Shown here piece after piece: positions 240 to 42,841 of a DNA stretch of 64,000 nt. The number at the start of each line of letters is the position of its first letter. Position 1 is the stretch's first letter. Below the pieces are notes generated by a model. It searched no databases. It was not told the DNA's origin and saw only the letters and a list, made by a program, of their open reading frames with translations. The stretch covers positions 37,014,001 to 37,078,000 of the forward strand of contig OZ017797.1 of the NCBI GenBank assembly GCA_963969395.1, in the 5' to 3' direction. This DNA is from Pseudoscleropodium purum. Its lineage: Eukaryota > Streptophyta > Bryopsida > Hypnales > Brachytheciaceae. The translations under genes and the position numbers were made by a program.

Positions 240-3200
240 ACTATCAAAGGCTCCAAAAGAATAATATCAATGTAATTCCAGTGTTTGGAATCACTTTATG
301 TTCATTGTAGTTATCAAAATCATTGAGCAAGTCCTCAATATTGCCCAACTATAGTTGCTACACAAATAAAAGAGCAATTATTAGATCAAAATTCAAAATC
401 TCTTTTGGTCTATTGAATCTAGCAATTCTAGAGCTGCTTTGACTATATCTATCTATCTAAGTAAATATTCTACAACCATAGAAGGTGCTTACAATTTACA
501 CACCTATAATATAGGTATTTATAACATGTCATATATATCCTATAATCATGAAAGATTTCTATAATATGGACACCTATAACTCTATAAGATAGATGCATAG
601 AGCCTAATGCTCATGTACTCATGATTTTAGGCTCACATAATAGCAATTGTTAGGTAACTAAGGGTTTACACTTTCAAAATGATTGTTTGGTTTGAACATC
701 TTATCTACCATTCTCAAATATTTGTGGCATCGTTTTATGGCATTTGAGGTAGGATTGTCTTCTCTAACAAACAGACCTCAAGATGAACACAATGTCTAAA
801 AGCCCCTCCGTACGTTTAATAAAGTTTAATAAAGTTAACTTTAAGTTTGATTTTCAAATAACTTTCAAAGAAAGCACTATCTCTTTTCAATCTTAACATA
901 TTAAAGTTTCATTTTATTGAAGTGTCTCAATTGAATTAAAAATTATTATATTCTAAATTTTTGAATCATACTTGCAAAGAGGTTTCTATAAGCAATCAAC
1001 TTCATAGAAGACCTTATTAGACATGTTCAGACTGACAAATTGTTGTATAACATATGACTTTAGATTGACAATCCTAAATTGTGTTTGACAAAACAACCAT
1101 GATTTCAAGGTCATTTTGTTGTCTATTTTTGTTGATTGTGTTTGGTAAACATAGGTCTGTTGAAGCGTTCTTGCAGACATTGAGGTTGCTTTTTTAATTG
1201 CCACTAAGGTAGCATTGAGCTTCCCACGCAACAAGGTCGTCACTCAAGATTGAGGAGAAAAAATAGTCTTATAGTTTAGACTCACTGTTCAATCTTCCAA
1301 CATTAATGATCCACATCTTGAGGTAATAAAATCTGTTGTTCGATAGTTGTTACTTTAGTTTATAAATAAACTTGGTTAATGTATATGTTGAACTAGTTGA
1401 TTTCTTGACATCCATTTAGCACAAGGAACTGCAATGTGTTGGTATTGGTGGGTGAACTGGACTGATAGCATGTTCTATAAGGTAGTCTACTCTTAAAACG
1501 ACCTTTTAAGAGTTGATTGCATTTTGGGAGAAGCTAAACTCCTTGAAAAAAGTTTTAAGCAAATTTTTGTAGGAAGAAAAATGGAATTCAAGTATCTAAA
1601 TCAAGTTGTGTTTCATATTTTATAGATCTTTGTGGAATTAGTTACTAATTCTTGAAGTTGAAATGCAATTGTCACTAATTGCAACCACCTCCTGAAAATG
1701 TATACTATTGATATATTGAAGAAAGAAAAATATACATTTGTGTGAATGGTTGCTTTTAGAGTACCTTGTCTTAAACAAGATCATAGGTTGATGAGTGTCA
1801 AGGTTGCACTAACACCTAAGAATGATAGGGCAATGCTCTAGTTCCACCAACTATATCTACCTTTTATTTTCATTTTTTATAGATTTTAAAGTGAAGACTA
1901 CAATGATTTGTCCTTGTTAGTTAAAATGCACTTAAAGAAAACAAGTATTACTACAAAATTTTATTTTTGTGGAAATTAGTAAAATTTGTTAATATTTCAA
2001 GTTGTATTAATTTCCTTATTGTAAAAATAATGTGAGTTTGATAAATTAGTGTTGTACATACTAATAGGACAAATAGGACAAACTATTGCAGTATTTTTTT
2101 TGAGATTAGATGCCACTTGATAAGAAACCAACCATATACTGTAGTTTAGAGGAATAACAAACTACGAACTACAAAATGTATGGGTTAAAAATTTGATCTA
2201 TTTTCAACTTATATGTTGAATATGAAATTTAGGAACATATAAAACCTTTTTAAAACTACAAAAACTTTGTAAACAAGTATAACATGGAAGAGATAATCGT
2301 AGATGAAGTTTGAATATGCATTTGCCAACCTATGGATGAAAAATCATCCCAAATTTCCAATGAAAAAATGACAATGGTATAGGCAATGATAGAAAAGGCT
2401 ATATTCAAACAAGTTGTTCAAGTTATGTTGCAATGTTTGTACCATATTGCAATAAGGCATCTAGCGATGTCCAAAGTTGTGTCCATGCTCAATAATAACA
2501 AAATTGTGGATGATTGTACTTTGAAAGACTATCATGAACATTCAAGCTCGTCATAAGTTTGAGATCACTTAGTTTTTGTTTTTCTACATTAGTCTCTTCT
2601 TTGCAATGTATTGCAAAAGATGATAACTATTTACATTTAGATTCTCAGAGTCACAAACAAGCACTTCATTTGTGTGAGAAATACCTACTTATAGGCTTCA
2701 ATTGTATGTATTATAAGTTGTAATTGGTGTAAATCATTTTATAGCTCATGTAGTACTTTTAGAGATTTACTTTTCAATGAATAAAATTCTTTTGCTTGAG
2801 ATCAATATTTTTTTAGTTTCAATTGATTTGATCTTAGATGTTCTTAATAAAAAACTCTTTTTTATAAATAAAATGAAACCTTCTCAACGATTGTCTATAA
2901 TATTATTTTAGATATTATATCATAGGATTTATTTTCTTTCTCATTATTGTTGACTTATTAAACCATAGTTTGGTGAAGGTATGCACAAATGTCAATGATT
3001 TTTTGATAGAGTGAGATATATTGTATTTCAAAGAATAATTTGAGCTTTTGCATCAATTGAATAAATTTATTTGTTGTAAATCTTAAGAATGAAAAGTGAA
3101 TAAAGTGAAGTTTTCACCATCATAAAATCTTGATAATTAATTTGGTGGTAGCAAAGATGAATGATAATGCTTTTGCACATAGTTTTAGAATATGATTTAA

Positions 3201-4205
3201 AATTTTGACCAGTTCAATATAAATATACCATGGAACTAAATGCAAGGAAAATGAACCAAGAATTCATTTCAAAAATGAAAAAATGAACTTTTCATAAATG
3301 AAAGGTCGATCTAAGATCTATAATATTATATTTAGACTTCCCAAATTAGAAAGAACTTGCAAAAATCAAGTAATTCAACTATGCACATATACCACTTTTG
3401 ACACTACCATAAATGAGCTTACATCTATAATACTATGACTAATTTAAAGCTTCTTGATTAAAAAGGTAGGGGTTGAGGATTGAAGCCCCCCCAAAACCCA
3501 TCCTATATTGTATTCAATGGATTCTTTAATTAAACTTATCTAAATAATTAGGTTGAAACTCATCTACAAGCCCGTACTTATTATACCACATCCATCCAAA
3601 TTCAATTAGTGTAAAGGGTCTAATACCATTCAAATGCTTTCTCTTGTTGAAGTAGTATAAATCTTTTTGGAACATTTACTGAGAAATAAATCCCTTCTCT
3701 CATTGAATTGCTACAAAACATTACAAAGAGGGGCTACTAGACTATTAAAGTAGTAGTTTGATGTCATTGAATAAAAAAAATATTATTTTAAAATAATTGC
3801 AGTTTGGTATTGCACTGGGTTGCAATTTATTAATTTAAAAACTATCCCCCCCCCAAATGTTATTTCTTTAACTCAACCACATTAAATTGTTGGTCCAAAG
3901 TCTAGTGACCCTCGTGGGGCCCTATTTTTTTTCCTAATATCTTGAGATGGTATCACTTTCTTTGAATGAATGTACAGTTGGATAGAAAATCATCTTTCAT
4001 CCATTTAAAATTTTTTTTAACCTTGGACATAAATGAAATTGTAAACTCTACTTCAAGATGCTCACATCTTACTTTGACAAGAGCTCCCGCAAGAGCTACA
4101 CATGTCATAAAAAAACAATTCATGAACACCATTAGAGAAAATTAACAAAACTAGCTTGCATATACAAGCATTGCTTTTCTTCTAGGCACTTTGGTTGTTG
4201 GGATA
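1..4205. other. AT-rich intergenic DNA without a gene
   Basis: I see no protein family, splice-consistent exon chain or RNA gene here; open frames are short and of low complexity. It includes a (CA)n microsatellite at 209-236 and a short poly-C run near 3846. Probably decayed repeats. Confidence 0.6.
209..236. repeat. (AC)14 microsatellite
   Basis: A pure AC dinucleotide run of 28 bases. A shorter (AC)n/(TA)n compound microsatellite lies at about 7384-7410. Confidence 0.95.
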
Positions 4206-5484
4206 ACAATAGTGGAATACCAATCAAAATGGCATATTCAAATTTGCAAGTGAAAGAAATTTCAATGCTGTCAACTTTGACAACCTTCTAAAAGCTGAAA
4301 AATTGGTATTGTACCATTAATTTTTTTCATGACATCAAATTTATGTTAATAACACGTGTACCAAATTTCAAGTTCAAAAGATATACCAAATCTACTAACA
4401 TGTGTAGCTGTCAAAAAATTTTCTACTACCAACTTTGACAACCTCCTAAGGATTGAAATTTTATTTTTTGGCCATGAAATTTTTGGTATAAGACCATATA
4501 TATGTTGATTACATTAAAAAAATTCATGTCCAAAATTTAAAAAAAAAATAAGATATTCAAAATCTACCAACATGTGTAGTTGTGAAAAACAATTTCACTC
4601 TTGCTAACTTTCACACTATCTCAAGGTTAAAAAATTGTCTATTTACGATGAATTTTTTTTCATGAGGATCACTTCTATATTAATAACATTTGTGCCAATT
4701 CGCAGGTTGAAAAAATCATTCTCACAGCTATATATGTTGGTAGATTTCAAATATTTTTTTTTGCATGCATATTTTGGCCTTGAAATTTGGCACACATTTT
4801 ATCAACATAGAGATGGTCTTATACCAAAAATTTTATAATTAAAAAAAATTCAGCCCTAAGAAGATGTTGGAGTTGGCAGCCTTAAATTGTTTCTCATAGC
4901 TACACATGTTGGTAGATTTTATATATCTTTTTTTTGTATGAATTTATTGGCCTTGAATTTTGTTGCACATGTTGTTATCATACAAAGAATTTAGTGACAA
5001 AAGTTTCATAGTAAATAAGCAAATTTTTAGGCCTTGGGAGGGTGTCAAAGTTGGCAATAGTGAAATGGTTTCCATGATTGTTTTTCAAAATGACACATGT
5101 TGGTAGACTATAAATATCTTTTTGTGTATTGATCTTTAGGACTTGAAATATAGAATGTTTGTTATAAGCATAGAGGAATTGATATTCCAAAAATTTGATG
5201 GCAAAAAAATAAAAAATTCAATCCTTGGGAGGCTATCAAAGTTGGCAACAATGAAATTTTTTCACAACTACACATGTTGGTAGATTTTAAATATCTTTTG
5301 TCTTGCAAATCTTTTGGCTTTGAAATTTGGTACATGTGTTATCAACATAAAGCTGATGTTGTGACAAAAATTTCATGGTAAAATACCAATTTTTTAGCTC
5401 TTGAGAGGTTGTCAAAGATGACAATATTGAAATATCTTTCATTGCAAATTCAAAAACGCCATTTTGATCGGTACACCATAGTAT
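4206..5484. mobile_element. Foldback-type element of inverted ~175-bp subrepeats
   Basis: The two ends are inverted copies: CAATCAAAATGGC at about 4221 pairs with GCCATTTTGATCGG at 5459, and the similarity continues inward for hundreds of bases. Each arm is itself a tandem array. The motif CTACCAACATGTGTAG lies at about 4394 and 4565, and its inverse near 4734, 4908, 5094 and 5270, spaced 171-186 bp. Thus about 2.5 units face one way and 3.5 to 4 the other, with the switch near 4700-4740. No coding capacity is seen. This architecture matches foldback (FB/Galileo-like) elements; an inverted satellite is the alternative. I saw no clear target-site duplication. Confidence 0.7.
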
Positions 5485-5559
5485 AGCTTAGAGTAAAAGC
5501 AAGCTATGAGAGTATAAAAACTAAGGTCCTTTATGAAATTTGTACTAAAAATTTAGGCC

Positions 5560-5803
5560 TACACTAAATAGTGAAATTAGGTTGCCTTACCTTAAGAAAT
5601 AGTTACATTACAAGTCATCAAAGTCAATAGATATTTCTATAGATATTTTCATTTGTACACATGAAAGTTCATAAGTCCTAATTGCACCAAGACCTAATTC
5701 AAAAGTATTGTATTCTTGTTCGATAACAATAAATATTTATATAGTATACAATTTCAAGAAATTAGTGAAGAGCAACCTAATTTTACTATTTAGTGTAGGC
5801 CTC
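5560..5803. mobile_element. MITE with ~30-bp terminal inverted repeats
   Basis: The end at about 5561-5592 (CCTACACTAAATAGTGAAAT followed by TAGGTTGCC) is repeated in inverse at 5772-5803. The interior is AT-rich and non-coding. A third, direct copy of the end lies at 5868-5898, so a second, shorter arm pair (5772-5898) overlaps it. A diverged interior copy lies at 26782-26980. Confidence 0.65.
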
Positions 5804-5867
5804 ATACTTCGTATCTAACAATTCTACATGATAAGAGAGCACTTTCATGGAACAAGCGTTGCTAACC

Positions 5868-5898
5868 TACACTAAATAGTAAAATTAGGTTACCCCAC
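5868..5898 (+). repeat. Third copy of the MITE terminal repeat
   Basis: It reads CCTACACTAAATAGTAAAAT then TAGGTTACC, matching the left end at 5561 and inverse to the end at 5772-5803. It may be a remnant of a second or nested MITE. Confidence 0.6.
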
Positions 5899-7452
5899 AA
5901 TGTTGCAATGTTGCACCAAAAATCTATGCAAGTCCTTGCTTGAGCAGATGAGAGTACATTGTAGCATAGAGCTGATGAAAGTTGCAATTTATGGTGTGGC
6001 AAGAATCACACCAATTTAATAAAATTTGACTATTCTCAAATTTTGTTTCTTCATGATATGATAATTTTTTTTTTCTTTCTAAAATTGTTGAGCACTATAG
6101 TTGAACTGGACTGAATCCTACGTTTGGCTCCAATTTGTTGAAGATTAAATCACTTGGCGTTACCTATTTGTTTCAATATTGTGTACTTGCATGGACACTA
6201 GAGTTAAATGTGTGTTCAAGTTAAACTGCAAATGTATTGTACATATAAAATGAGAATTGTTCTTATGAAATCCCAGAAACCTCATTCACTTGTTATATGG
6301 TCGAGCAGCCCAAGTCCATCATTCATCCAATTTCGTGATCTACCAATTTGCCCCATTATCATCACTCTCCCATCCATTTTTATAAAGTGGATAAATGATG
6401 TACTTTGAGCAAGTAATTGGGTTTAAAGTTGGTAAGATATGGTTTAATAAATGTTAAGTTAGGTGAACTTAGTTGTGAATAAATATTTGTGAAAATAAAT
6501 TATAAATTTGACTAATAAAAGAACTTTTTTGAATGTTGAATTTGTGCTTTTAAAACACTCATCTAAAAGAATTACGGTGGTCAGTCACTCATTTTGAAGC
6601 TTTTTAAGATGGTCACAACCTCCACCCACTAACGATTTTCTATTTTGGGTTTGAAAATTCATATCAATTCAAGTTTCTTATTGGATTAATATGATTCCAC
6701 TTGTGTTTAAATCAATTCACTTAATTCTTTCTCTGAAAAATATAGGCAACTATGAACACATTTCACAAGATATCTAGATTGCAAATCAAAGTCACAATAA
6801 ACTATTCTACCTTATATTGGCAAAAGTTTTGTGTCAAAATGTGACATTCAAGAGCTGAAGATTACGGCTTTAATTTACAATTTCATATGGGATTTCAGCG
6901 TCAACAAGAATCTTGGAATCTTTTTATCTAGGTGCTTTATAGATCTGAGATTTCAGATGAGTGTCCCAAATTGCTCCAGTTCCAGATAGGCATCGAAACT
7001 GTTGGAGTTCCTTGTACAAATCAAAGCTGTTCTCTAAATGCTCAGATTCAATCTGTGAAATTACACCAACAAACCTGAACATCAGTAATCATAATAGTGA
7101 ATTTGATATAGTTTGAAGCATGGAAAATTGGGGCATTCAAGTGCATGGGGATCAAATTACTCGGACATGTAAAGTGTAAAGAATGTGAGCTGGCGGGGTT
7201 GTTTGCAGAAATTTTATTCGTACCTACATGTTTTGAAGGTAGCTTAATTCCTTCCAATCAGGAGGGGTCTTTTAGTTTTCAATGCCCAAATCTTGTGTCT
7301 TTTAAATGTAACTTTGTGATGCACTCCCTATCTCAGTGTGGTCAAGTTTTAATTCCAAACCGATTAAAAGTTATTGAATTAAAACACACACACACACAAT
7401 TATATATATATTGATAGCAATAAGGGTAGTCATTGCTTCAATTAGAGTTCAA
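5899..7452. other. Intergenic DNA, nothing recognised
   Basis: AT-rich sequence with only short open frames on both strands, none resembling a known family. Confidence 0.5.
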
Positions 7453-8363
7453 TTAATCTGTAAGGATAAGACCTTTTCTTTGCCAAAAAAGAGTCAAAAC
7501 TGCCATTTCTACAGCATAAGGTGAAAAACCATTTAAATTGTTTTTTTTCACATCTAACCCTAGGGTCTTACACTTAACTAGTATGAGAATGTGTCAAAGT
7601 TCAGGTTTGTTGGTGCACAGATTGCAGGATATCTGCATTTAAAGTGAAAAAAAACAACTTTTTCAGCACATTGTGGGATTAGATTTTTTGACTTTGAACA
7701 TTTTTAACTTTGCTTTTTTGCACTACAAAGTTTTGAGCTTTAAATCTTTATGATATAGAATTGAGTTGAGAATCTAATAAAAAATATAGATTTCAAAAAA
7801 CCTTAGTTTTTATTCTTTAAAAAATTGTTAAGTAGAAGTAGGTACAAGCAGATAGAAAGAAAATCTAAATTATTAATATCTCTAAAATGGAATTAAAATG
7901 AAATAGTGACAATAGTAAGATTGTTCTAGTAAGCAAGATAAACCATGTGGAACTTTTTTGGGGGGAAAAATTGTAAAAAATGCATTTAGAAATGAATCCT
8001 ACAAGTTATTTTTTCAAGAAGATACTCTAATTGCCCCAAAAATAAGATTGTTCATAACTTTCTTATAAAAAATCCAAATGGAATGAATGAAATCTTTCCA
8101 TACACACAAAAATAAAATCTATGAGGAAAAAAATTTAAAAACAATAAATAAAAAATGAATTGTTTTTGCTACCCTTCATCTCCTGTTTTGTGCTTATTTG
8201 AGCATTACTTTTGCTCTTGGGCACCAATTGAAAAAAAATCATATTCCCATGAAACTAATCAATCTTTTCATCTTCAAAAAAAATTAAAAAAAATTAAAAA
8301 AATGTAGATACTTGCCTAAAATCCCATTTGTCCCTTTAAAAAAAATGGTCCTTCAGGGGTTAA
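7453..8363 (-). mobile_element. TTAA-flanked TIR element, family A copy 2
   Basis: It is an inverted, diverged copy of the element at 28195-29161. Matching blocks include the stretch with TTTAAAGTGAAAAA and the GACTTTGAACATTTTTAACTT region. The right end reads CCTTCAGGGGTTAA and the left end TTAATCTGTAAGGA, so TTAA flanks degenerate CCCCTAAAGG-type termini on both sides. No open frame of transposase size exists; it is non-autonomous. Confidence 0.65.
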
Positions 8364-8953
8364 TGGAGAAATAAGGCATGGTGCTTTTCCATTGGCTATC
8401 CGGATATTGTAGAGCTCCCATTCCCCATTTATTGAACCAACCCATTCTTATCCTCCATAGCTAGAGAAATGAGCATTTGAAAGATTTCATGGATAATATT
8501 TTAGTTTCCGCTAAGGAATTTTCACCCTTGTGTTGTCGATTTCACCATCATTTTTTACTTCACTGTTGTTGTTGCTCAAAGACACTATTGCCACAAACTT
8601 ATCCATCCAATACATGCATGTATATCCATTCTCCAATTTCCATTCTCTATGCTTGACACATCAAAAAGGGGTGCTACACCTTTTTCATGTACAATGGCTC
8701 CTCATTGGCTCCTTTTTTCTCTCACCAACTTTTCATTCTTGAAGAAATTTTGCTTCTCAAAGGAGATGTGACATTGTGACTACCTTTATTGATGATGCCA
8801 TGAGGTTTTAGACAATTGCCAAAAGAATCCACTCTTTTGAAATTTTGCCATTTTAAATAGCGAGGCAAATATCTACTTCACAAAAATGAGTTTTGTCAGT
8901 TTTATGTCACTTTCTAATATCAATAACAATCATAATAACAACAATGTTGGTCC
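8364..8953. other. Spacer between two TIR elements
   Basis: A 590-bp AT-rich stretch between family A copy 2 and family B copy 1. I see no gene, repeat or RNA in it. Confidence 0.5.
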
Positions 8954-10285
8954 TTAATCCCTAAAGAGTAAACATGATTTTTTGAAAACATAGCATTTGG
9001 GGGCAGCTCACTATGAATGGAATTTTTTTTCTTTGAAGTTTTCACTCAACATGTGCTTGAGGAGTAGCTTTAAAGCACAATAATTTTCATAACTTTTGAC
9101 TACATAATAAAAAAATTATTGTATGATATATTGTTTTCATTGCTCAATGGGCAGTTCAAAAATTTCTTAAAAAATCACTTTTTAAAAAAATAAAAATTTG
9201 AACTTGGTTTTTTAGATTTATGTATATGTGGAAAGATTTGAATCATTCTATTTTGATTAATGAGATGAAAGTTATGAGGAGTTTTAGTTTGTGGGCAATT
9301 ATAGAATGTCCACTCTAGAATAAACTTTGAAGTCCTTTATTTAACTCTATTTTCAATATTCTTAAAAAAAATAAAAGCACTAGATGTAGATTTTTTATTA
9401 CAACATTAAAACTATTGGGATTCACATTTTAAAATTAAATAATTAAATTCTTAACAATTTAATATTTTGAATCGTTGTATACTTCTTTCTGCTATATATT
9501 TTTTCCTATAAGGTAGAATAACCTATTACCATCCTAATTAGCGATCTAACTAGCTTTAGGAGAGGTTCATATTTTTCAAAGTTGTGTGCTTGTTTCGCAA
9601 ATCTAACACAAGTAGAATTATAATTTTTCCATCAAAATTGTAATTTCTGTGAATTTTTAAAGTAGGCTGCTCTAAAATTACAAAACCATCCATAGGATGG
9701 GGTCAAAAATGTCTCATGAACAGTCCATTATCATCTTAACATGTATCTATTGGCACTTAAGTTCCCACCAATGAAGGATTGACATGTTACCCCTTTGGGC
9801 ATTAATGCACTAAAATTGTCAGGAAAGTGAATGGATATGGGTTTTATAGTCAATAGAATTGGGGCCAAAGTGTAGGTAACAAAATTGGGAAAATGACGGA
9901 ATTGGGTAATTCTACCTTATGTTGTACAATTCTAAATGATTTGAAATTTTTCAAGCATATTTCTAACTTGCCTTGAAGAATGAATCCTAAGAGTAACTAT
10001 AATTTTGGATATTTTTTTCATAAAAATGTGACTTTGTAAAGTGCAACTACTTGGTTTTTGCATGGCCAAAAAATTAAATTTTATCAATTCAAATGCTAAT
10101 ATCTTGCCATCTACATGGTAGAAAATTCTGAAATTTTTCACTTTTTTTCAAAGTAGTGAATAAGAAGATCCTATAGTTCCATATGTCCCAATATGTTTTT
10201 TTGTCTAAAATTTGGTACTTGTACTAGAAATGGCAATTTTGGAGCATTTTTGGTGAAAACATAGTCAAAAACCTTTAGGGGTTAA
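8954..10285 (+). mobile_element. TTAA-flanked TIR element, family B copy 1
   Basis: The left end reads TTAATCCCTAAAGAG and the right end CCTTTAGGGGTTAA, a short terminal inverted repeat flanked by TTAA on both sides. About 450 bp of the left part (to about 9400) is repeated at 61026-61480, where the copy also begins at a CCTCTAAAGG end, which supports the boundary. The last 250 bp resemble the right end of family A. No transposase reading frame is visible. Confidence 0.6.
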
Positions 10286-13776: not shown

Positions 13777-14663
13777 TTAACCCCTAAAGGATCATTGGCC
13801 CTATGGGGGACAAAATGACAAATGGAATTTTAGGCAAGTATTTACGGGTTGAAATTTTTTCATGATTTTTCAAAACTTTTTTTTGAAGATTGTAAAATTG
13901 ATTAACTTTATGAGAACATCGTTTTTTTTTCAATTGATGCTTGAGAATAAAAGTTATGCCCAAATAAGCTCAACACAGGGGACGGGGTGTAACAAAAAAA
14001 ATTCAAATTTTTTTAATTTGGATAAAAAAAAATCTTTTCTCATAAATTATATTTTTTTTCTACATGAAAAACTTTGATTCATTCCATTTAGATTTGTTAT
14101 GAGAAAGTTATGGGCAATTTTATTTTTGGGGCAATTAGAGCATCTTCTTGAAAAAATAACTTATAGGATTCATCTATTAATGCAATTTTTTCAGTTTTAA
14201 AATAGTGTGCTTGCTAGAATAATATCACCATTGGAATTAATGGATTTCAATTCTATTTTAAAGATACTAATAATTTAAATTTTCCTTCTATCTCATACTT
14301 ACTTCTATTTAGTAATTTTTTAAAGGATAAAAATTAAGTTTTTTTGAATCTTTTTTTTCCCCTAGACTCTCAACTCAAATCTCCACTTTGAAGATTTAAA
14401 GCTCAAAACTCTGTAGAGCAAAAATTTTAAGTTAAAAATGTTCAAAGTCATAAAATCTAGTCTTGCAATGTTATGAAGAACTTGTTTTTTCACTTTAAAT
14501 GCAAATATTTTGCAATTTGTATGGTCAAAAACTTTGAAATATTTATCATAGATAATTATTCATACCAAGTTTCCAAATCATAGGATGAAACTTGATTTAT
14601 ACTTCTTTAGCTTAAGTCTAAGACATTAGAAGAAATTTGGGATCTCCATAGGGTTGTGAGTTA
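13777..14663 (+). mobile_element. TTAA-flanked TIR element, family A copy 3
   Basis: It begins TTAACCCCTAAAGGATCA and runs parallel to 28195-29161. It shares the GGGACAAA block, the AAGCTCAA...GTAAC block (where the other copy carries a G24 run), GAGAAAGTTATGG and TTAGAGCATCTT. The right end is degraded; a GGGTTGTGAGTTA near 14651 is the best candidate. No coding capacity. Confidence 0.6.
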
Positions 14664-16823: not shown

Positions 16824-17729
16824 ATGGCATCCTCAGTGGCTTTCGCTTTGTGCATCGTGCTCTGCATTTGCAGTCTGCAGACTGCGGTTCAGGGTAAGCC
16901 CTTTATTCCATAACTATAAGCATCCTAGTTCATATGCTTGTCTTGTAACTCCCCAAAGATACATCCGCCTCTATATTAATTCATCGATTGCATCGATCCC
17001 GCTTACAGTGTTCGATCTCCATATTAATTAAATACCTTTTGTCAAACTTTTTAGCCCAGTTCTCTTGTGAACTTAATAGCTACTGCCTGAAATCATGTGG
17101 TTCAGCTGGCGCATTAATTCTCGCAACTTCATAACCTCGATCGGTAGCTAGTTCTCCTCTTCATGTCTCCGATCTCTGTAAGTAGAGTTCAAATCTAGAT
17201 ATCCACCAGTTGAGTACTACAAAAAAGTTCCAACAATGTTGTGATTGCAACTGTTGCAGCAAAGAAGGAAAAGCTTACGCTTACCGTGTACGTCAACGAG
17301 ATCCGCGGCGGCCCCAACGTCACAATCCTGGCAGCCGCAGGAACAGGCCAAGGCAACTTCTCTGCTCTGGGCTGGGGCAGCCTCCTCGTCTCCGAAAATA
17401 TCCTGAAGGAAGGCCCCTCTCCAGACAGTCCTACTCTCGGAAGAGTAACAGGCTCCGGGCTCTTGAGCACCAAGGGAGGCTTTGCTGACGGCGGAACGCA
17501 AGTGATCAACAAGTTTTGGTTCTCTCCCACGTCGAAGTACCTGGGCTCCAGTATTACGGTCTTGGGAACATTGGCGTACCCGTTGGCGCCATGGGAACTC
17601 ACCGCCATCGCTGGGACTGGACAGTTCCGGGGATACTACGGATACGTGTTAGCGTCGCCGGAGCTTTCCTTCACCGTGGCTCCACTCTTTGTTTACAAGT
17701 TTGAGTTCCACCTTTACCAGTTGTTTTAG
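16824..17729 (+). CDS. Dirigent protein, copy 1 (two exons)
   Basis: Join 16824-16893 and 17260-17729; 540 nt, 179 residues. Exon 1 encodes a typical signal peptide (hydrophobic MASSVAFALCIVLCICS) and ends in phase 1 at AGG|GTAAGC; the 366-bp intron ends in TTGCAG. The mature part has dirigent landmarks: LTLTVYVNEIRGGPN near the N-terminus, GSLLVSENILKEGP, a central LGRVTGSGL, then YLGSSITVLG and WELTAIAGTGQFRGYYGYV. Dirigent proteins are secreted beta-barrel proteins that direct stereoselective coupling of phenoxy radicals (lignans, lignin-like polymers) in the cell wall; the substrate here cannot be told. Length is usual for the family. The start is the first ATG before the signal peptide and is conserved in copy 2, which lies tail to tail 2.2 kb away. 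The promoter carries W-boxes. Confidence 0.9.
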
Positions 17730-28194: not shown

Positions 28195-29161
28195 CACTTA
28201 ACCCCTAAAGGACCAGTGTCCCTTCAAGGGACAAATGGGTTTTGGGGTAGAAGTCTATGGGCTGAAGTTATTTCTTTATTTTTTGAAATTTTTTTGGAAG
28301 ATAGAAAAATTTATTGGCTTCATAGGAATATAATTATTTTTTTCAATTAGTGCCTAGGGACAAAAGTTATGCCCAAATAAGCTCAAAAGAAGGGATGGAG
28401 GGGGGGGGGGGGGGGGGGGGGGGTGGTAACGAAAAAAATTTCAAAAATTTCAATTTTCAATTTTTTCTCAATTTTTTTCCTCATAGATTATATTTTTATG
28501 TACATGTAAAGCTTTAATTCATTCCATTTGGATATTTTATGAGAAAGTTATGGACAATCTTGTTTTTCAAGCAATTAGAGTATCTTTTCAAAAAAATAAC
28601 TTAAAGGATTTATTTTTTAATGCAATTTTTACAATTTTTCCAAAAAAAAAGTTCCACATAATCTATCTTGCTTTCTAGAACAATCTCACTATTGGAATTA
28701 GTGCATTTTTATTCCATTTTAGAGATATTAATAATTTAGATTTTCCTTCTATCTAGTACCTACTTCTATTTAACAATTTTTTAAAGGCTAAAAATTATTA
28801 TTTTTTAAAAATTTTAAAAAAAATTTCTAAACTCTCAAGTCAATTTTAAACTATAAAGATTTAAAGCTCAGAACTCTATATACAAAATTTTAAAGTTAAA
28901 AATGTTCAAAGTCAAAAAATCTAAGCCCCCACAATGTGCTGAAAAACATGCTTTTTTCACTTTAAATGCAGATATTATACAATCTGTGCGGTCAAAAATT
29001 CTAAAAAATTTTCCACACATTCTCATACTAATTAGGTATAAGATCCTACTATTAGATGTGAAAAAAATATATTTTTTAATCTTTTTAATTTTTGCTATAG
29101 AAATGGCAGTTTTGAGTGTTTTTTGGCAAAAAAATGGCCTTGGTCCTTTAGGGACTAAGTG
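28195..29161 (+). mobile_element. TIR element, family A copy 1 (best preserved)
   Basis: Terminal inverted repeats of 21 bp match at 19 positions: the left end reads CACTTAACCCCTAAAGGACC and the inverse of the right end CACTTAGTCCCTAAAGGACC (20 of 21 bases shown). The TTAA directly before CCCC is kept in most related copies (7453-8363, 8954-10285, 13777). Length 967 bp, AT-rich, no transposase. A G24 homopolymer sits at 28400-28423. Ends of TTAA plus CCC resemble piggyBac-type termini, but CACTA-like ends (CAC...GTG) cannot be excluded for this copy. Confidence 0.65.
28400..28423. repeat. G24 homopolymer
   Basis: Twenty-four consecutive G on the plus strand, inside family A copy 1. The equivalent place in copy 3 (about 13978-13988) has only GGGGACGGGG, so the run expanded after the copies separated. 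Confidence 0.9.
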
Positions 29162-37219: not shown

Positions 37220-37224
37220 GTTCT
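37220..37224. other. Left target-site duplication of the copia element
   Basis: GTTCT directly precedes the 5' LTR and is repeated at 42837-42841 directly after the 3' LTR. Five bases is the usual Ty1/copia duplication. Confidence 0.85.
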
Positions 37225-37679
37225 TGTTGAAGATATTGAGTAGGATGCTTTGGATTGTTTGTGAAAGCTCGTAGTATGGGCTAACGTTGGATAGGTGTTG
37301 TTTGTAGCCAAAGCAAGAACAATATAGGATCGCCACATGTCATGCATAGGATAGGCAAGGACACGTGGAAGGAAGCATGTTGGCGAAACGCCACGTGTCT
37401 TGCATGTAGTAGGCAAAGACACGTGAAGGGCATAGGATAGATGGACCGACACGTGTCTAGACACGTGGAAGGTCGCATGAGGACGGACCGCCATGTGGTC
37501 CATGAGGTGGCAAGAGGTGGCTTACAAGTGGCATTCGAAAGGACTTGCAAGACACTTGAGACGCCACCAAGTAGTAGTATAAGAGGAGAGCTCTTAGCAA
37601 CGGCTCACTACCCTTTCTCACACTTGTTTGTAATCCCCCTTCATTAGAATATATTGGCTTAGTGTTTCTTTTCTCAATA
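37225..37679 (+). repeat. 5' LTR
   Basis: Begins TGTTGAAGATATTGAG and ends TTCTCAATA. It holds five CACGTG sites between 37362 and 37467, two of them within the perfect 18-bp palindrome CACGTGTCTAGACACGTG at 37450-37467, and a TATA box at 37578. CACGTG is the G-box bound by bZIP and bHLH factors, so this is the likely enhancer of the element. Confidence 0.92.
37578..37583 (+). promoter_or_regulatory. Putative TATA box of the retrotransposon
   Basis: TATAAG lies about 110 bp downstream of the G-box cluster and about 100 bp before the LTR end, a fitting place for U3. The 3' LTR copy is at 42735. Confidence 0.55.
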
Positions 37680-37693
37680 GGTTATGGGCCCAC
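37680..37693 (+). other. Primer-binding site for half initiator tRNA-Met
   Basis: GGTTATGGGCCCAC abuts the 5' LTR. It is complementary to the anticodon arm (GTGGGCCCATAACC) of plant initiator tRNA-Met as I recall it, not to the tRNA 3' end. Drosophila copia primes from the 5' half of the same tRNA in this way. The usual plant site TGGTATCAGAGC is absent. Confidence 0.75.
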
Positions 37694-37978
37694 TCATGTG
37701 AGTTACTATTAGAGATTGGATCTCATTGCAAGGTGTGTTGGAGGAGCATTATTGGAGTTTGGAGCAAGTGGAGTTTGGAGTCATTTGGAGCATTTTCATT
37801 GAAGATTTGGACCTTTGGGTGAGGTATTTTGTTGTTTGGGGTTCATTTGTGCTCATTGAGGTGTGATTTGGTGCTTCATAGCCTTTGTTGGGAGCTAGAG
37901 TTTAGCTCTTCCTCCAAAGGGGCTAATTTGTGCATTTAATACTTCATTGAGGTGATTTGAAGCATTTGAGTGCTCATA

Positions 37979-38265
37979 AGAGAGATTTGCATCATTTGAG
38001 GTCTGATTTGAGTGTATTAGATCATTTGGAAGTGCATTGGAGAGATTTGAACCACTTGGGGTCTGAATTGAGTGATTTGGAGCGCTAGAGTGTGCATTGG
38101 AGAGATTTAGACCATTTGAGGTCTGAATTGAGTGATTTGGAGCACGAGAGTGTGCATTGGAGAGATTAGAGCCATTTGAGGTCTAAATTGAGTGATTTTG
38201 AGCACGAGAGTATGCATTGGAGAGATTTGGGCCACTTGAGGTCTGAATTGAGAGGATAGGACCAT
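37979..38265 (+). repeat. 60-bp tandem repeat in the retrotransposon leader
   Basis: About 4.5 copies with an exact 60-bp period: GGAGAGATTT, then CCA.TTGAGGTCTGAATTG, AGTGATTTGGAGCAC and GTGTGCATT. It lies between primer site and start codon, in a part of the transcript that normally carries packaging and translation signals. Confidence 0.85.
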
Positions 38266-38407
38266 TGAGGGTCTTATTAAAAAAATTGAGGGTATTTGGG
38301 ACCCTATTGGACTTGTTACAACCACGAGGGAGTGAGTTGTGCATTTTGAGGTTACATTGAAGTGATTTGGATCACTTGGGGTTGTAGTAGAGTGGGAGGT
38401 ATTCACC

Positions 38408-41400
38408 ATGGCCACTAGTGATGGAGATAGCGTGAGGGTCATTGACAAGTTCAATGGAGAGAACTTTGGCCTATGGAAATTCAAGATGGAGATGATCTTG
38501 GCCGAGAAGGACTTGTGGGAGATTGTGGAGGGCACCGAAGAAGCACCCGCAACCGATGCGGACGCCAAAGTTAAGAAGGCCTATGAGAGGAGGGTCAAGA
38601 AGGCCTTTTCCATGATTGCTTGCAATCTTGTGGATAGGCAACTTGCACATGTTCGCGCATGCAAAGGACCCGCAGAAGCATGGAAGGTGCTTTGCAACAT
38701 CCATGAGACCAAGAGCTTGTCCAACATGCTTTTCATTCGGCGCAAGTTCTTCACGTGCAAGATGCAAGAGAATGAAGACATGCTCGACCACATCAACAAG
38801 GTCAAAGCGCTTGCAGACCAACTCACTTGTTTGGAGGTGCCTGTGACAGATGGAGATATTGTCATGACTTTGCTTGATAGCTTGCCATCTTCATATGAGT
38901 ATCTTATCACTGCATTGGAGACAAGACCCATGGAGGAGCTCACCCTCAACTTCATCACCGCAAGATTGATGCATGAAGTGTCCAAGAGGAAGGAGAATGA
39001 GCCCCAAGAAGGAGGGGCCGCACTCTATTCACGAATTGGACAAGGAGGAAGCTCACAACCACGCAAAGAGACACGCATGTGCTACAATTGTGGTAAGCCC
39101 GGCCACCTTGCACGGTTTTGTAGGTTGCCCAAGAGGGAGAGCGCAAACAAGGCAAGTGCCAAGGAAGTGGAGGAGGACTTTGCGTTTGCAGCCAATGATG
39201 GGTATGACAACACCGACATGTTCACATGGATCATTGACTCGGGTGCAACGCAATATATGACTCCACATAGACAAGCTTTTCTCACTTATAAGCCTATTAG
39301 CAACCACAAGGTGTATTTGGGTGACAATGGCGTGGTGGATGCAATTGGCATGGGGTGCATCGTGGTGGAGGTGAAGGGCCAAAGGAAGACCATTCGCATC
39401 CAAGATGCGTTGCATGTGCCCAAATTACATGCCAACTTGCTCTCGGTGAGCAAGTTGGTGTCACAAGAGCTGAAGGTGCAATTCAACAACAAGGGTTGCG
39501 ATTTGGGTGCACCCAATGGAGAGATGATTGTGACCGCACCTAAAGAGGGCAACTTGTATCAATTGAGGTTCAAAAGTGTGAATGGCACAAGAATGGCATG
39601 TTTGGCCCAAGGAGCACTCCACCAACACTCTTTGGAGCTATGGCACAAGAGATTGGGCCACCTCAATGAGAAGAGCGTCAAGACCCTTCAAAGCATGGTG
39701 GGAGGCATGCAAGTGGAGAAGGGCTCTTGCGATTTGAAGTGCGAGGCTTGCATTGAAAGCAAGCAAGTAAGGCAACCGTTCCCAAGGGATGGAGGCACAA
39801 GGGCAACCAAGGTGTTGGAGATTGTGCACTCCGATGTGTGTGGCCCCATGAAGACCACTTCCATGGGTGGTGCAAGGTATTTTTTGACCTTCATTGATGA
39901 TTTTTCAAGGAAGATATGGGTGTTTATGCTCAAGTGCAAGAGTGATGTATTGGAGAGGTTTAAGGCATGGAAGGCACTTGTGGAGAATGAATCGGGGCAC
40001 AAGGTGAAGGTGTTGCGGTCGGACAATGGAGGGGAGTACATGTCCAAGGCCTTTGAGGCTTTTATGAGAGAACATGGCATTCAACACCAAACTTCAGCGC
40101 CTTATACTCCACAACAAAATGGTGTGGCGGAGCGTGCCAATCGCACACTTATGGAGATGGCTCGGGCCATGTTGCATGCCCAAGGCCTCACATATGATCT
40201 TTGGGCGGAGGCTATATCCAATGCGGCCTACACACGCAATAGGTGCCCCACCAATGCAATTGCATCTATGACGCCACAACAAGCTTGGAGTGGGAAGAGG
40301 CCCAATATTGGGCACATGCGCATTTTTGGATGCGTTGCATATGCTTTAGATTTGAGTCCCAAGCGTTCCAAGCTTGATGCCAAGGGCATTAAGTGTTTGT
40401 TGGTGGGCTATTGTGAGGGCTCCAAAGCTTATAGGCTCATGTGTATAGAGACGAAGAAGATCATCAAAAGTCGAGATGTCACATTTGTGGAAGAGAAGCA
40501 AGGGGCAAGCCATGATTTGGAGATGTGTCCAAGTGGGAGCATGGAGGAACCTAATATTGAGGTGGACAAATCTCCAAGCATGGAAGCTTTGCCCAAGGAA
40601 GATGAAGAGCATGATGATTCACCACCAACGCCCACAGAGAAGACATGTCCATCAACGAGTGCGGCACCAAGTGAAGATGAAGAAGAAGATACTTCCAAGG
40701 TGTCTAGATATCCTACAAGAGAAAGGAGGCCGCTTGGAGAATGGTGGAAGAACCACATCTTACCTCAAGAGCATGTGGAGCACGTGAATGTGGCGTATGC
40801 AAGAGATCCATGCAATGTGGGAGAAGCCATGAAAAGTGCGGATGCAAGCAAGTGGGAGCAAGCCATGAAAGAAGAGTATGCCTCACTTATGGCCAAAGGT
40901 ACATGGGAACTTTCTCCCCTTCCTCGTGATCGTACAAGTGTTGGATGCAAGTGGGTGTTTTGCACCAAGAGAGATGCATTGGGTAACATTGTGCGCTACA
41001 AAGCGAGATTGGTAGCCAAGGGGTATTCTCAAGTTGAAGGGGTGGACTTCAAAGAGACTTTTGCTCCTGTGGCCAAGTTTTGCACCATTCGATGCATGGT
41101 GGGAATCGGGGCAGCCATGGACTTGGAAATGCATCAAATGGATGTGATCACGGCGTTTCTTAATCCTTGGCTTGAAGAGGTGATCTACATGGATCAACCC
41201 AAGGGCTTTGTGCAAGAGGGCCACCAACACCTCAAGTGCAAGCTCAAGAAGGCCATCTATGGGTTGAGACAATCCGGAAGAGCATGGTACATGGATGTGG
41301 ATGCATTGTTTGCAAGAGAGGGCTATAAGAGGAGTCATGCGGACCACTCTCTTTACATCAAACAAACAAGTGCATATTTGGTGATTGTCATTGTATATGT

Positions 41401-42400
41401 GGATGATTTGATCATCATGACCAACACCATGAGTAAGATGGTGGAAGTGAAGGCTATGTTGAAGAGCCAATACGATATGAGCGACCTTGGTGAGCTACAC
41501 TATTGCCTTGGAGTGGAGTTTACAAGGCAACGAGCTGCCCGCACCATCACCATGAGCCAAAGCAAGTATATTGAGGGCGTATTGAAGCGCTTCAACATGG
41601 AGGGTTGCAAATCCGTTGGAACACCTCTTGATATGAAGGAGAAGATGCCTAAGCTCACGGAGGAAGAGTATGAAGGAGTGAGGGCGGAAATGCAAGATGT
41701 GCCGTACAAAGCCGCGGTAGGGAGCTTGATGTATGCCATGGTAGCTACAAGGCTTGACCTAGCATTTGCTATGAGTGTGGTGAGTCAACACATGGTCAAA
41801 AGTGGGCCAAAGCATTGGGCAGCGGTCAAGAGGGTCATGCGATACCTGCAAGGTTCTTTGGATGCCAAGTTGGTACTTGGAGGCAAGAGCCTTGCATTGG
41901 TGGGTTTTTGTGATGCAGATTGGGCCGGAGATGCAACGGACCGGAGATCCACAACGGGCTATGTGTTTATACTTGGAGGCGGTGCCATTTCGTGGAACTC
42001 GAAGAAGCAACCCACCATTGCATTGTCTACCACAAAGGCCGAGTACATGGCTATTAGCCAATGCACAAGGGAGGCCATATGGCTAAGGCAACTCATGAGT
42101 GATGTGGGATTGGAGCAAGAGAAGAGCACATGCATCATGTGTGACAATCAAGGTGCCATAGCCTTGGTGAAGAATCCAATCCATCATTCACGGAGCAAAC
42201 ACATCGACATTCAACACCATTTCATTCGTGAGAAGGTTGAAGAAGCTGTGATTGAGATGAAGTACATTTCTACGGAGCGCATGGTGGCGGATGTGCTTAC
42301 CAAGGCACTTGGTAAGCCGCGACATGAAGTTCTTCGCAAGGCCATGGGTTTAACATTGTTTGGCAACAAACAAAGTGGGAGTGTTGAAGATATTGAGTAG
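38408..42400 (+). CDS. Copia gag-pol polyprotein (1330 residues, intact)
   Basis: One uninterrupted frame encodes all retrotransposition functions. In order: gag (UBN2-like, residues 1-220) with zinc knuckle CYNCGKPGHLARFC (C225, C228, H233, C238); aspartic protease with DSG at D277; GAG-pre-integrase with H413 and H418; integrase with D476, D539 and E575 (the 35-residue D-E spacing); an acidic Ser/Pro/Glu-rich linker near 730-800; reverse transcriptase with YVDD at 997-1000; RNase H with CDADW near 1168 and TKAEYMA. The ATG at 38408 is preceded by CACC. The frame ends with TAG 19 bp inside the 3' LTR, so its last codons overlap the polypurine tract and LTR. No stops, frameshifts or lost catalytic residues were seen. 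Codons are GC-richer than the flanking DNA. Confidence 0.95.
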   Translation: MATSDGDSVRVIDKFNGENFGLWKFKMEMILAEKDLWEIVEGTEEAPATDADAKVKKAYERRVKKAFSMIACNLVDRQLAHVRACKGPAEAWKVLCNIHETKSLSNMLFIRRKFFTCKMQENEDMLDHINKVKALADQLTCLEVPVTDGDIVMTLLDSLPSSYEYLITALETRPMEELTLNFITARLMHEVSKRKENEPQEGGAALYSRIGQGGSSQPRKETRMCYNCGKPGHLARFCRLPKRESANKASAKEVEEDFAFAANDGYDNTDMFTWIIDSGATQYMTPHRQAFLTYKPISNHKVYLGDNGVVDAIGMGCIVVEVKGQRKTIRIQDALHVPKLHANLLSVSKLVSQELKVQFNNKGCDLGAPNGEMIVTAPKEGNLYQLRFKSVNGTRMACLAQGALHQHSLELWHKRLGHLNEKSVKTLQSMVGGMQVEKGSCDLKCEACIESKQVRQPFPRDGGTRATKVLEIVHSDVCGPMKTTSMGGARYFLTFIDDFSRKIWVFMLKCKSDVLERFKAWKALVENESGHKVKVLRSDNGGEYMSKAFEAFMREHGIQHQTSAPYTPQQNGVAERANRTLMEMARAMLHAQGLTYDLWAEAISNAAYTRNRCPTNAIASMTPQQAWSGKRPNIGHMRIFGCVAYALDLSPKRSKLDAKGIKCLLVGYCEGSKAYRLMCIETKKIIKSRDVTFVEEKQGASHDLEMCPSGSMEEPNIEVDKSPSMEALPKEDEEHDDSPPTPTEKTCPSTSAAPSEDEEEDTSKVSRYPTRERRPLGEWWKNHILPQEHVEHVNVAYARDPCNVGEAMKSADASKWEQAMKEEYASLMAKGTWELSPLPRDRTSVGCKWVFCTKRDALGNIVRYKARLVAKGYSQVEGVDFKETFAPVAKFCTIRCMVGIGAAMDLEMHQMDVITAFLNPWLEEVIYMDQPKGFVQEGHQHLKCKLKKAIYGLRQSGRAWYMDVDALFAREGYKRSHADHSLYIKQTSAYLVIVIVYVDDLIIMTNTMSKMVEVKAMLKSQYDMSDLGELHYCLGVEFTRQRAARTITMSQSKYIEGVLKRFNMEGCKSVGTPLDMKEKMPKLTEEEYEGVRAEMQDVPYKAAVGSLMYAMVATRLDLAFAMSVVSQHMVKSGPKHWAAVKRVMRYLQGSLDAKLVLGGKSLALVGFCDADWAGDATDRRSTTGYVFILGGGAISWNSKKQPTIALSTTKAEYMAISQCTREAIWLRQLMSDVGLEQEKSTCIMCDNQGAIALVKNPIHHSRSKHIDIQHHFIREKVEEAVIEMKYISTERMVADVLTKALGKPRHEVLRKAMGLTLFGNKQSGSVEDIE
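42372..42381 (+). other. Polypurine tract
   Basis: AAAGTGGGAG abuts the 3' LTR and is the expected plus-strand priming site. It also encodes residues near the polyprotein C-terminus. Confidence 0.75.
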
Positions 42401-42836
42401 GATGCTTTGGATTGTTTGTGAAAGCTCGTAGTATGGGCTAACGTTGGATAGGTGTTGTTTGTAGCCAAAGCAAGAACAATATAGGATCGCCACATGTCAT
42501 GCATAGGATAGGCAAGGACACGTGGAAGGAAGCATGTTGGCGAAACGCCACGTGTCTTGCATGTAGTAGGCAAAGACACGTGGAGGGCATAGGATAGATG
42601 GACCGACACGTGTCTAGACACGTGGAAGGCCGCATGAGGACGGACCGCCATGTGGTCCATGAGGTGGCAAGAGGTGGCTTACAAGTGGCATTCGAAAGGA
42701 CTTGCAAGACACTTGAGACGCCACCAAGTAGTAGTATAAGAGGAGAGCTCTTAGCAACGGCTCACTACCCTTTCTCACACTTGTTTGTAATCCCCCTTCA
42801 TTAGAATATATTGGCTTAGTGTTTCTTTTCTCAATA
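42382..42836 (+). repeat. 3' LTR
   Basis: Same length as the 5' LTR. Visible differences are ACACGTGGAGGG for ACACGTGAAGGG and AAGGCCGC for AAGGTCGC. The palindrome with two CACGTG is at 42607-42624. Confidence 0.92.
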
Positions 42837-42841
42837 GTTCT
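42837..42841. other. Right target-site duplication of the copia element
   Basis: GTTCT, identical to 37220-37224. Confidence 0.85.

What the first reader, a model, noticed from the sequence alone, without database searches (positions are those of the whole stretch)
37680..37693. Copia element apparently primed by the 5' half of initiator tRNA-Met
The base right after the 5' LTR starts GGTTATGGGCCCAC, complementary to the anticodon arm of initiator tRNA-Met rather than its 3' end. This is the half-tRNA priming known from Drosophila copia. Most plant copia elements use the tRNA 3' end (TGGTATCAGAGC). Here the site lies in an intact, apparently young plant element, so the mechanism is probably in current use.
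Basis: partly seen in the sequence, partly recalled or inferred. Interest (0 to 1): 0.75.

Follow-up and report, generated by a model that had tools for sequence, protein, structure and literature searches.

The report
Moss-type copia primed by half tRNA
An apparently intact, young plant jumping gene carries a start site that fits the broken-off front half of the cell's initiator tRNA; this is real but already described for moss elements of this kind.

Summary
A copia element lies at 37225-42836: two 455-bp LTRs with 2 differences, 5-bp TSD GTTCT, one open 1344-aa gag-pol frame. GGTTATGGGCCCAC (37680-37693) abuts the 5' LTR and pairs 14 of 14 with nt 26-39, the anticodon arm, of the host's initiator tRNA-Met (four genes found). 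The genome holds 219 exact copies of the 14-mer, the four tRNA genes included, against 1 for the reversed control. Of 72 contexts read, 70 follow an LTR-end-like string and 2 are tRNA-iMet genes. The host's 3'-end site and a self-primer are absent. Priming by a 5' tRNA half is the best reading; cleavage and use are inferred.

It is not new for plants: PMC6317226 (passages) reports half-tRNA-Met sites in Osser, Bryco and part of Gymco-II. The element resembles moss RLC5/Bryco: 38 of 42 LTR matches lie in one tight cluster on each of 10 of 11 large contigs, as reported for putative moss centromeres. The window copy is off-cluster. Verdict: new member of a known kind.

The parts
37220..37224 (+). 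5-bp target-site duplication, GTTCT (left copy)
37225..37679 (+). 5' LTR, 455 bp, TGTTG...CAATA
37680..37693 (+). primer-binding site GGTTATGGGCCCAC, complementary to nt 26-39 of host tRNA-iMet
37695..37699 (+). CATGT, possible second pairing block with tRNA nt 21-25 after a 1-nt bulge (weak)
37946..38252 (+). 60-bp tandem repeats (5.1 copies) in the untranslated leader
38366..42400 (+). gag-pol frame, stop to stop, 1344 aa: gag, zinc knuckle, integrase, reverse transcriptase domains; integrase DDE (D490, D553, E589) and RT YVDD (1011-1014) lie in invariant columns, protease DSG (291-293) in invariant or nearly invariant ones
40901..41629 (+). reverse transcriptase domain (residues 846-1088) used for the genome search
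42368..42381 (+). purine-rich tract AAACAAAGTGGGAG before the 3' LTR, identical in all five LTR pairs examined
42382..42836 (+). 3' LTR, 455 bp, 2 transitions from the 5' LTR (at 37426 and 37473)
42837..42841 (+). 5-bp target-site duplication, GTTCT (right copy)

Best explanation
A young, structurally intact Ty1/copia retrotransposon, most likely of the moss Bryco/RLC5 type, whose reverse transcription is primed by the 5' half of the host initiator tRNA-Met. Shown: the site abuts the LTR and pairs exactly with tRNA nt 26-39; several families in the same genome share the 14-mer and then diverge. Inferred: the tRNA is cut after C39, the new 3' end pairs with the first G of the site, minus-strand DNA starts at the last LTR base, and plus-strand copying of the annealed tRNA renews the 14-mer each cycle.
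For: 14/14 pairing with the four host tRNA-iMet genes found. 219 genome copies (4 of them the tRNA genes) against 1 reversed control. 72 occurrences read: 70 follow an LTR-end-like string, 64 of the 70 exactly CAATA, and 2 are tRNA genes. Of 30 LTR loci of this family, 10 are followed by the site and agree over the first 24 letters; 14 are 3' LTRs with the purine tract upstream, 5 look like solo LTRs with matching 5-bp flanks, 1 is unclear; none is followed by leader with a broken site. The base after the 14-mer is never the matching C in the 70 contexts (54 G, 9 T, 7 A). No 3'-end iMet site in the first 60 nt (best 4 mismatches of 12) and at most 4 nt of LTR self-complement. Half-tRNA-Met sites are reported for Bryco (PMC6317226, passages).
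Against: No cDNA, tRNA-half or particle data. Genome counts are of exact sites only; in a 50-kb cluster sample 2 of 6 sites carry 1 or 2 mismatches. Lineage was not placed against REXdb or RLC5 reference sequences, which were not available, and in the RT tree the site types do not sort into clean clades. A survey reports that 4-bp TSDs are commonest for Bryco (PMC6911290, passages), whereas all 5 pairs here have 5 bp.
Confidence: 0.86

Rival explanations
1. Same half-tRNA primer, but the half is a ready-made host fragment (a 5' tRNA half made by a host RNase), not one cut inside the particle by the element's own enzymes.
For: Plants make tRNA halves cut in the anticodon region (recalled, no call). 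The sequence data fit either source equally.
Against: The LTR junction implies one exact 3' end (C39) in all five pairs; a mixed pool of host fragments might be less exact.
Confidence: 0.3
2. The primer is the 3' end of some other tRNA that pairs with TGGGCCCAC starting 5 nt after the LTR.
For: TGG lies at offset 5, within the 0-5 nt range used for 3'-end sites in PMC6317226.
Against: It leaves GGTTA unexplained, although GGTTA pairs with tRNA-iMet and stands at the LTR end in every context read (those contexts were found with a pattern that includes GGTTA, so only the place, not the presence, is informative). No such tRNA was looked for in the genome.
Confidence: 0.03
3. Self-priming by a fragment of the element's own transcript.
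For: Predicted for the plant TAR and Tcn1 lineages (PMC6317226, passages).
Against: The longest complement in the LTR starting 0-5 nt downstream is 4 nt, below the mean of 5.2 for random sequence.
Confidence: 0.01
4. Chance or a promoter-like GGGCCCA motif rather than a primer site.
For: The motif resembles a plant promoter box (recalled).
Against: 219 against 1 in the reversed control; 70 of 72 contexts read stand at an LTR-end-like string.
Confidence: 0.01

Closest known systems
Bryco lineage of plant Ty1/copia (REXdb, PMC6317226)
   Same: Moss copia elements with a site complementary to 1/2 tRNA-Met (passages).
   Different: Not placed against its reference sequences here; TSD 5 bp in 5 of 5 pairs here, while PMC6911290 (passages) found 4 bp commonest for Bryco.
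RLC5 copia of Physcomitrium and Sphagnum (putative centromeres)
   Same: One dense cluster on each of 10 of 11 large contigs; RLC5 is said to be of the Bryco clade (PMC12885004, passage).
   Different: RLC5 sequence not at hand; one large contig (C1) has no cluster; the window copy itself is off-cluster.
Drosophila copia and genus Hemivirus
   Same: Short initiator-tRNA segment as primer (genus criterion, PMC8515867, whole text); the animal-type site in L017, a contig filed under a bacterium, also starts GGTTATGGGCCCA right after CAACA.
   Different: 14th base is C as in this host tRNA, G in L017; RT of L017 is 37% identical. The sequence of Drosophila copia itself was not fetched.
Copia elements with a 3'-end tRNA-Met site (most other plant lineages, PMC6317226)
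   Same: Same domain order.
   Different: They start TGGTATCAGAGC (seen exactly in L003, L004, L006, L011, L016 and with 1 mismatch in L018; in L006 and L018 it does not lie before the matched stretch); that site is absent here.

Membership tests
Half-tRNA-primed copia (Hemivirus-type priming) | Site next to the 5' LTR complementary to an internal initiator-tRNA segment | tested here: met
   14/14 with nt 26-39 of host tRNA-iMet
Half-tRNA-primed copia (Hemivirus-type priming) | tRNA is cleaved and the half primes DNA synthesis | not testable with these tools
   needs cDNA or particle RNA
Bryco lineage | RT/RH/INT phylogeny with Bryco references | tested here: inconclusive
   RT tree of 45 rows groups it with L001 and metagenome proteins P0001, P0006, P0010 and P0030 (100/100), apart from rows with 3'-end sites and the named plant proteins sampled, but no Bryco reference was held
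Bryco lineage | 1/2 tRNA-Met site | tested here: met
Bryco lineage | Moss host | tested here: inconclusive
   land plant by two dirigent-like genes; their 3 relatives found are unnamed metagenome proteins
Bryco lineage | 4-bp TSD most common (survey tendency, not a strict criterion) | tested here: not met
   5 of 5 pairs have 5 bp (PMC6911290)
RLC5 | One dense cluster per chromosome | tested here: met
   10 of 11 large contigs, C1 without; 38 of 42 LTR matches; 20 of 23 RT matches at 98% or more. Both searches score only the best candidates.
RLC5 | Sequence similarity to P. patens or Ceratodon RLC5 | not tested
   no reference sequence held

The most novel reading that the evidence does not exclude
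The primer site is bipartite: after the 14-mer and a 1-nt bulge, CAYGY pairs with tRNA nt 21-25 (the D-arm side), so the tRNA half, once freed from its 3' partner, opens its D arm and pairs over 19 bp. The same block is seen in L001 and, by eye and after a 2-nt bulge, in the animal-type element L017.
Probability: 0.15. Interest if true: 0.5.

Novelty: new member of a known kind. Interest (0 to 1): 0.3.

Why it matters
It ties two described traits to one element in one genome: half-tRNA priming and one tight, centromere-like cluster per chromosome. A rare off-cluster copy such as this one is useful for asking what normally directs or keeps these elements at the cluster. The host tRNA genes and many copies make the exact primer end directly testable.

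Tried and rejected
Rejected: chance, self-priming and a 3'-end iMet site, and a 3'-end site of another tRNA at +5 (argument only). Viral contigs gave no relatives; the first genome-contig scan confirmed none and the second gave 34 loci, of which the ones examined look like contaminant eukaryotic elements. Host naming by a dirigent-like protein gave 3 unnamed metagenome hits. A search of viral contigs for the iMet anticodon arm found five tRNA-Met genes that share the arm but differ from the host gene elsewhere, so they were not used; they also show that this arm is not peculiar to plants. The second pairing block was tested by shuffles: 7 of 8 contexts beat the shuffle mean, with fractions of 0.018 to 0.137; one (L041) did worse, at 0.908. 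This is post hoc, the contexts are related, and by eye I saw no CAYGY in the five elements with GGTTATGAGCCC, so it is kept only as a lead. The search for 3'-end-primed copia in this genome (TGGTATCAGAGC) did not complete, so I do not know whether the host also has such elements.

Full report
Observation. The window holds a Ty1/copia element on the + strand, 37225-42836. The two LTRs are 455 bp each and differ at 2 positions, both transitions. The flanks show a 5-bp TSD, GTTCT. A stop-to-stop frame of 1344 aa (38366-42400) carries gag, zinc knuckle, integrase and reverse transcriptase domains. In an alignment of 35 proteins the integrase DDE and RT YVDD residues are invariant and the protease DSG invariant or nearly so, and the window protein has them. 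GGTTATGGGCCCAC follows the LTR at once (37680-37693) and is the only match in the window with up to 3 mismatches. No tRNA gene was found in the window itself.

Host tRNA. The genome containing the window is 313 Mb in 52 contigs; eleven large ones make up 312.0 Mb. An exact 17-mer of the initiator anticodon arm finds four places. All four fold as tRNA-Met(CAT), with two sequence variants (three genes and one) that share the anticodon arm. Genes that differ in the 17-mer would be missed. The primer site pairs with nt 26-39, 14 of 14.

More than chance. The 14-mer occurs 219 times in the genome, the four tRNA genes included, against 1 for the reversed control. Copies multiply by descent, so these are not independent events. 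I read 72 of the 219 occurrences (69 loci), all on C1 and C40-C43 because only the first 100 places are listed, and chosen mostly among the isolated ones to find tRNA genes. Of these 72, 70 follow an LTR-end-like string (64 exactly CAATA; the LTRs themselves were not traced) and 2 are tRNA genes. At least three kinds of leader follow the 14-mer (TCATG..., GCACT.../ACACT..., AAACT...). The fifteenth base is never the matching C in these 70 (54 G, 9 T, 7 A), so the shared unit stops where the anticodon arm stops. For the element's own family, 30 LTR loci were examined: 10 are followed by the site and agree over 24 letters, 14 are 3' LTRs with the purine tract upstream, 5 look like solo LTRs with matching 5-bp flanks, 1 (L049) is unclear. 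Sites with mismatches do exist: in a 50-kb sample of the C41 cluster, 4 of 6 sites are exact, one has 1 and one has 2 mismatches. No 3'-end iMet site (best 4 mismatches of 12) or self-primer (longest 4 nt) is present.

Mechanism. Shown: site, position, pairing partner, conservation. Inferred: the tRNA is cut after C39, as recalled for Drosophila copia; the new 3' end pairs with the first G of the site; minus-strand DNA starts at the last LTR base; copying of the annealed tRNA renews the 14-mer. The TSDs in 5 of 5 LTR pairs put the LTR end exactly at that junction. Whether the cut is made in the particle or by a host RNase cannot be told from sequence. Current activity is not shown. Two differences in each of five LTR pairs mean recent insertion, but no rate for this host is known, and gene conversion could also make LTRs alike inside clusters.

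Genome setting. The LTR search gives 42 matches (a lower bound: 40 of 89 candidates were scored), 38 of them in one cluster on each of ten of the eleven large contigs, with cluster spans of 6 to 85 kb. The RT search scored 150 of 851 candidates: 74 of the 150 lie in ten 150-kb windows, the densest on each contig and so picked after the fact (0.5% of the genome), and 20 of the 23 matches at 98% or more lie there. No random-placement control was run. C1 has no cluster. In the 50-kb sample of the C41 cluster copia matches cover 22,085 bases, unevenly (456 to 9,448 per 10 kb), against 1,092 bases in five 10-kb stretches of window sequence outside the element, two of which overlap by 3 kb; these 1,092 fall in the stretches that hold the dirigent-like genes, whose relatives were in the query set. 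The window copy, 3.7 Mb from the C41 cluster, is one of 3 off-cluster copies among those 23.

Relatives. An RT tree of 45 rows puts the window with L001, P0001, P0006, P0010 and P0030 (100/100); L001 also has CAATA followed by the exact 14-mer, but the site types overall do not form clean clades.

Comparison. PMC6317226 (passages) reports 1/2 tRNA-Met sites in Osser, Bryco and part of Gymco-II, about 2% of elements having half-tRNA sites of either kind. PMC12885004 (passages) states that P. patens centromeres are enriched in RLC5 of the Bryco clade; PMC7466625 (passages) and PMC9946827 (passages) describe one RLC5 cluster per chromosome in P. patens and at least one in Sphagnum. The ICTV profile PMC8515867 (whole text) separates Hemivirus by use of a short tRNA segment; PMC3599292 (passages) finds that genus unclear in phylogeny and says that Sireviruses, too, use a short (9-bp) tRNA segment. 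PMC5408687 (passages) places Drosophila copia in Hemivirus; its text has no occurrence of 'tRNA'. So the trait is known in plants. I did not find a paper that states half-tRNA priming for RLC5 by name: none of the 10 papers listed holds both RLC5 and 'half-molecule tRNA', and the searches gave no such paper in their listings. The P. patens centromere paper itself was not read, so this is no claim of absence.

Limits. Lineage references were not available. Against a simple Bryco label, 5 of 5 TSDs are 5 bp while PMC6911290 (passages) reports 4 bp as commonest for Bryco.

Noticed in passing
window 16824-17726 (+) and 21041-19972 (-): Two dirigent-like genes, tail to tail, as an inverted duplicate (83-88% DNA identity), each apparently of two exons.
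   Followed up: partly
window 7462-8332, 13817-14544, 28230-29148: A dispersed repeat of about 700 bp in three copies, 77-81% alike, unidentified.
   Followed up: no
L058 (C40:45346330-45346784): An LTR with the purine tract on one side and the primer site on the other, that is, a tandem LTR-internal-LTR-internal arrangement.
   Followed up: partly
L001-L030 (genome contigs): Contigs filed under bacterial or archaeal genomes that look like eukaryotic copia elements, that is, likely contamination of those assemblies.
   Followed up: partly
L007:821, L014:1922, L015:127, L019:941, L020:501: Unassigned elements with AACA followed by GGTTATGAGCCC, which fits an initiator tRNA with U at position 33 (yeast-like, recalled). 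If hosts were known, the site could be tested for covariation with the host tRNA.
   Followed up: partly
G000 clusters on C40, C41, C43, C44, C45, C46, C48: Seven of the ten copia clusters lie within about 3 Mb of a contig end, which would suggest near-terminal centromeres.
   Followed up: no
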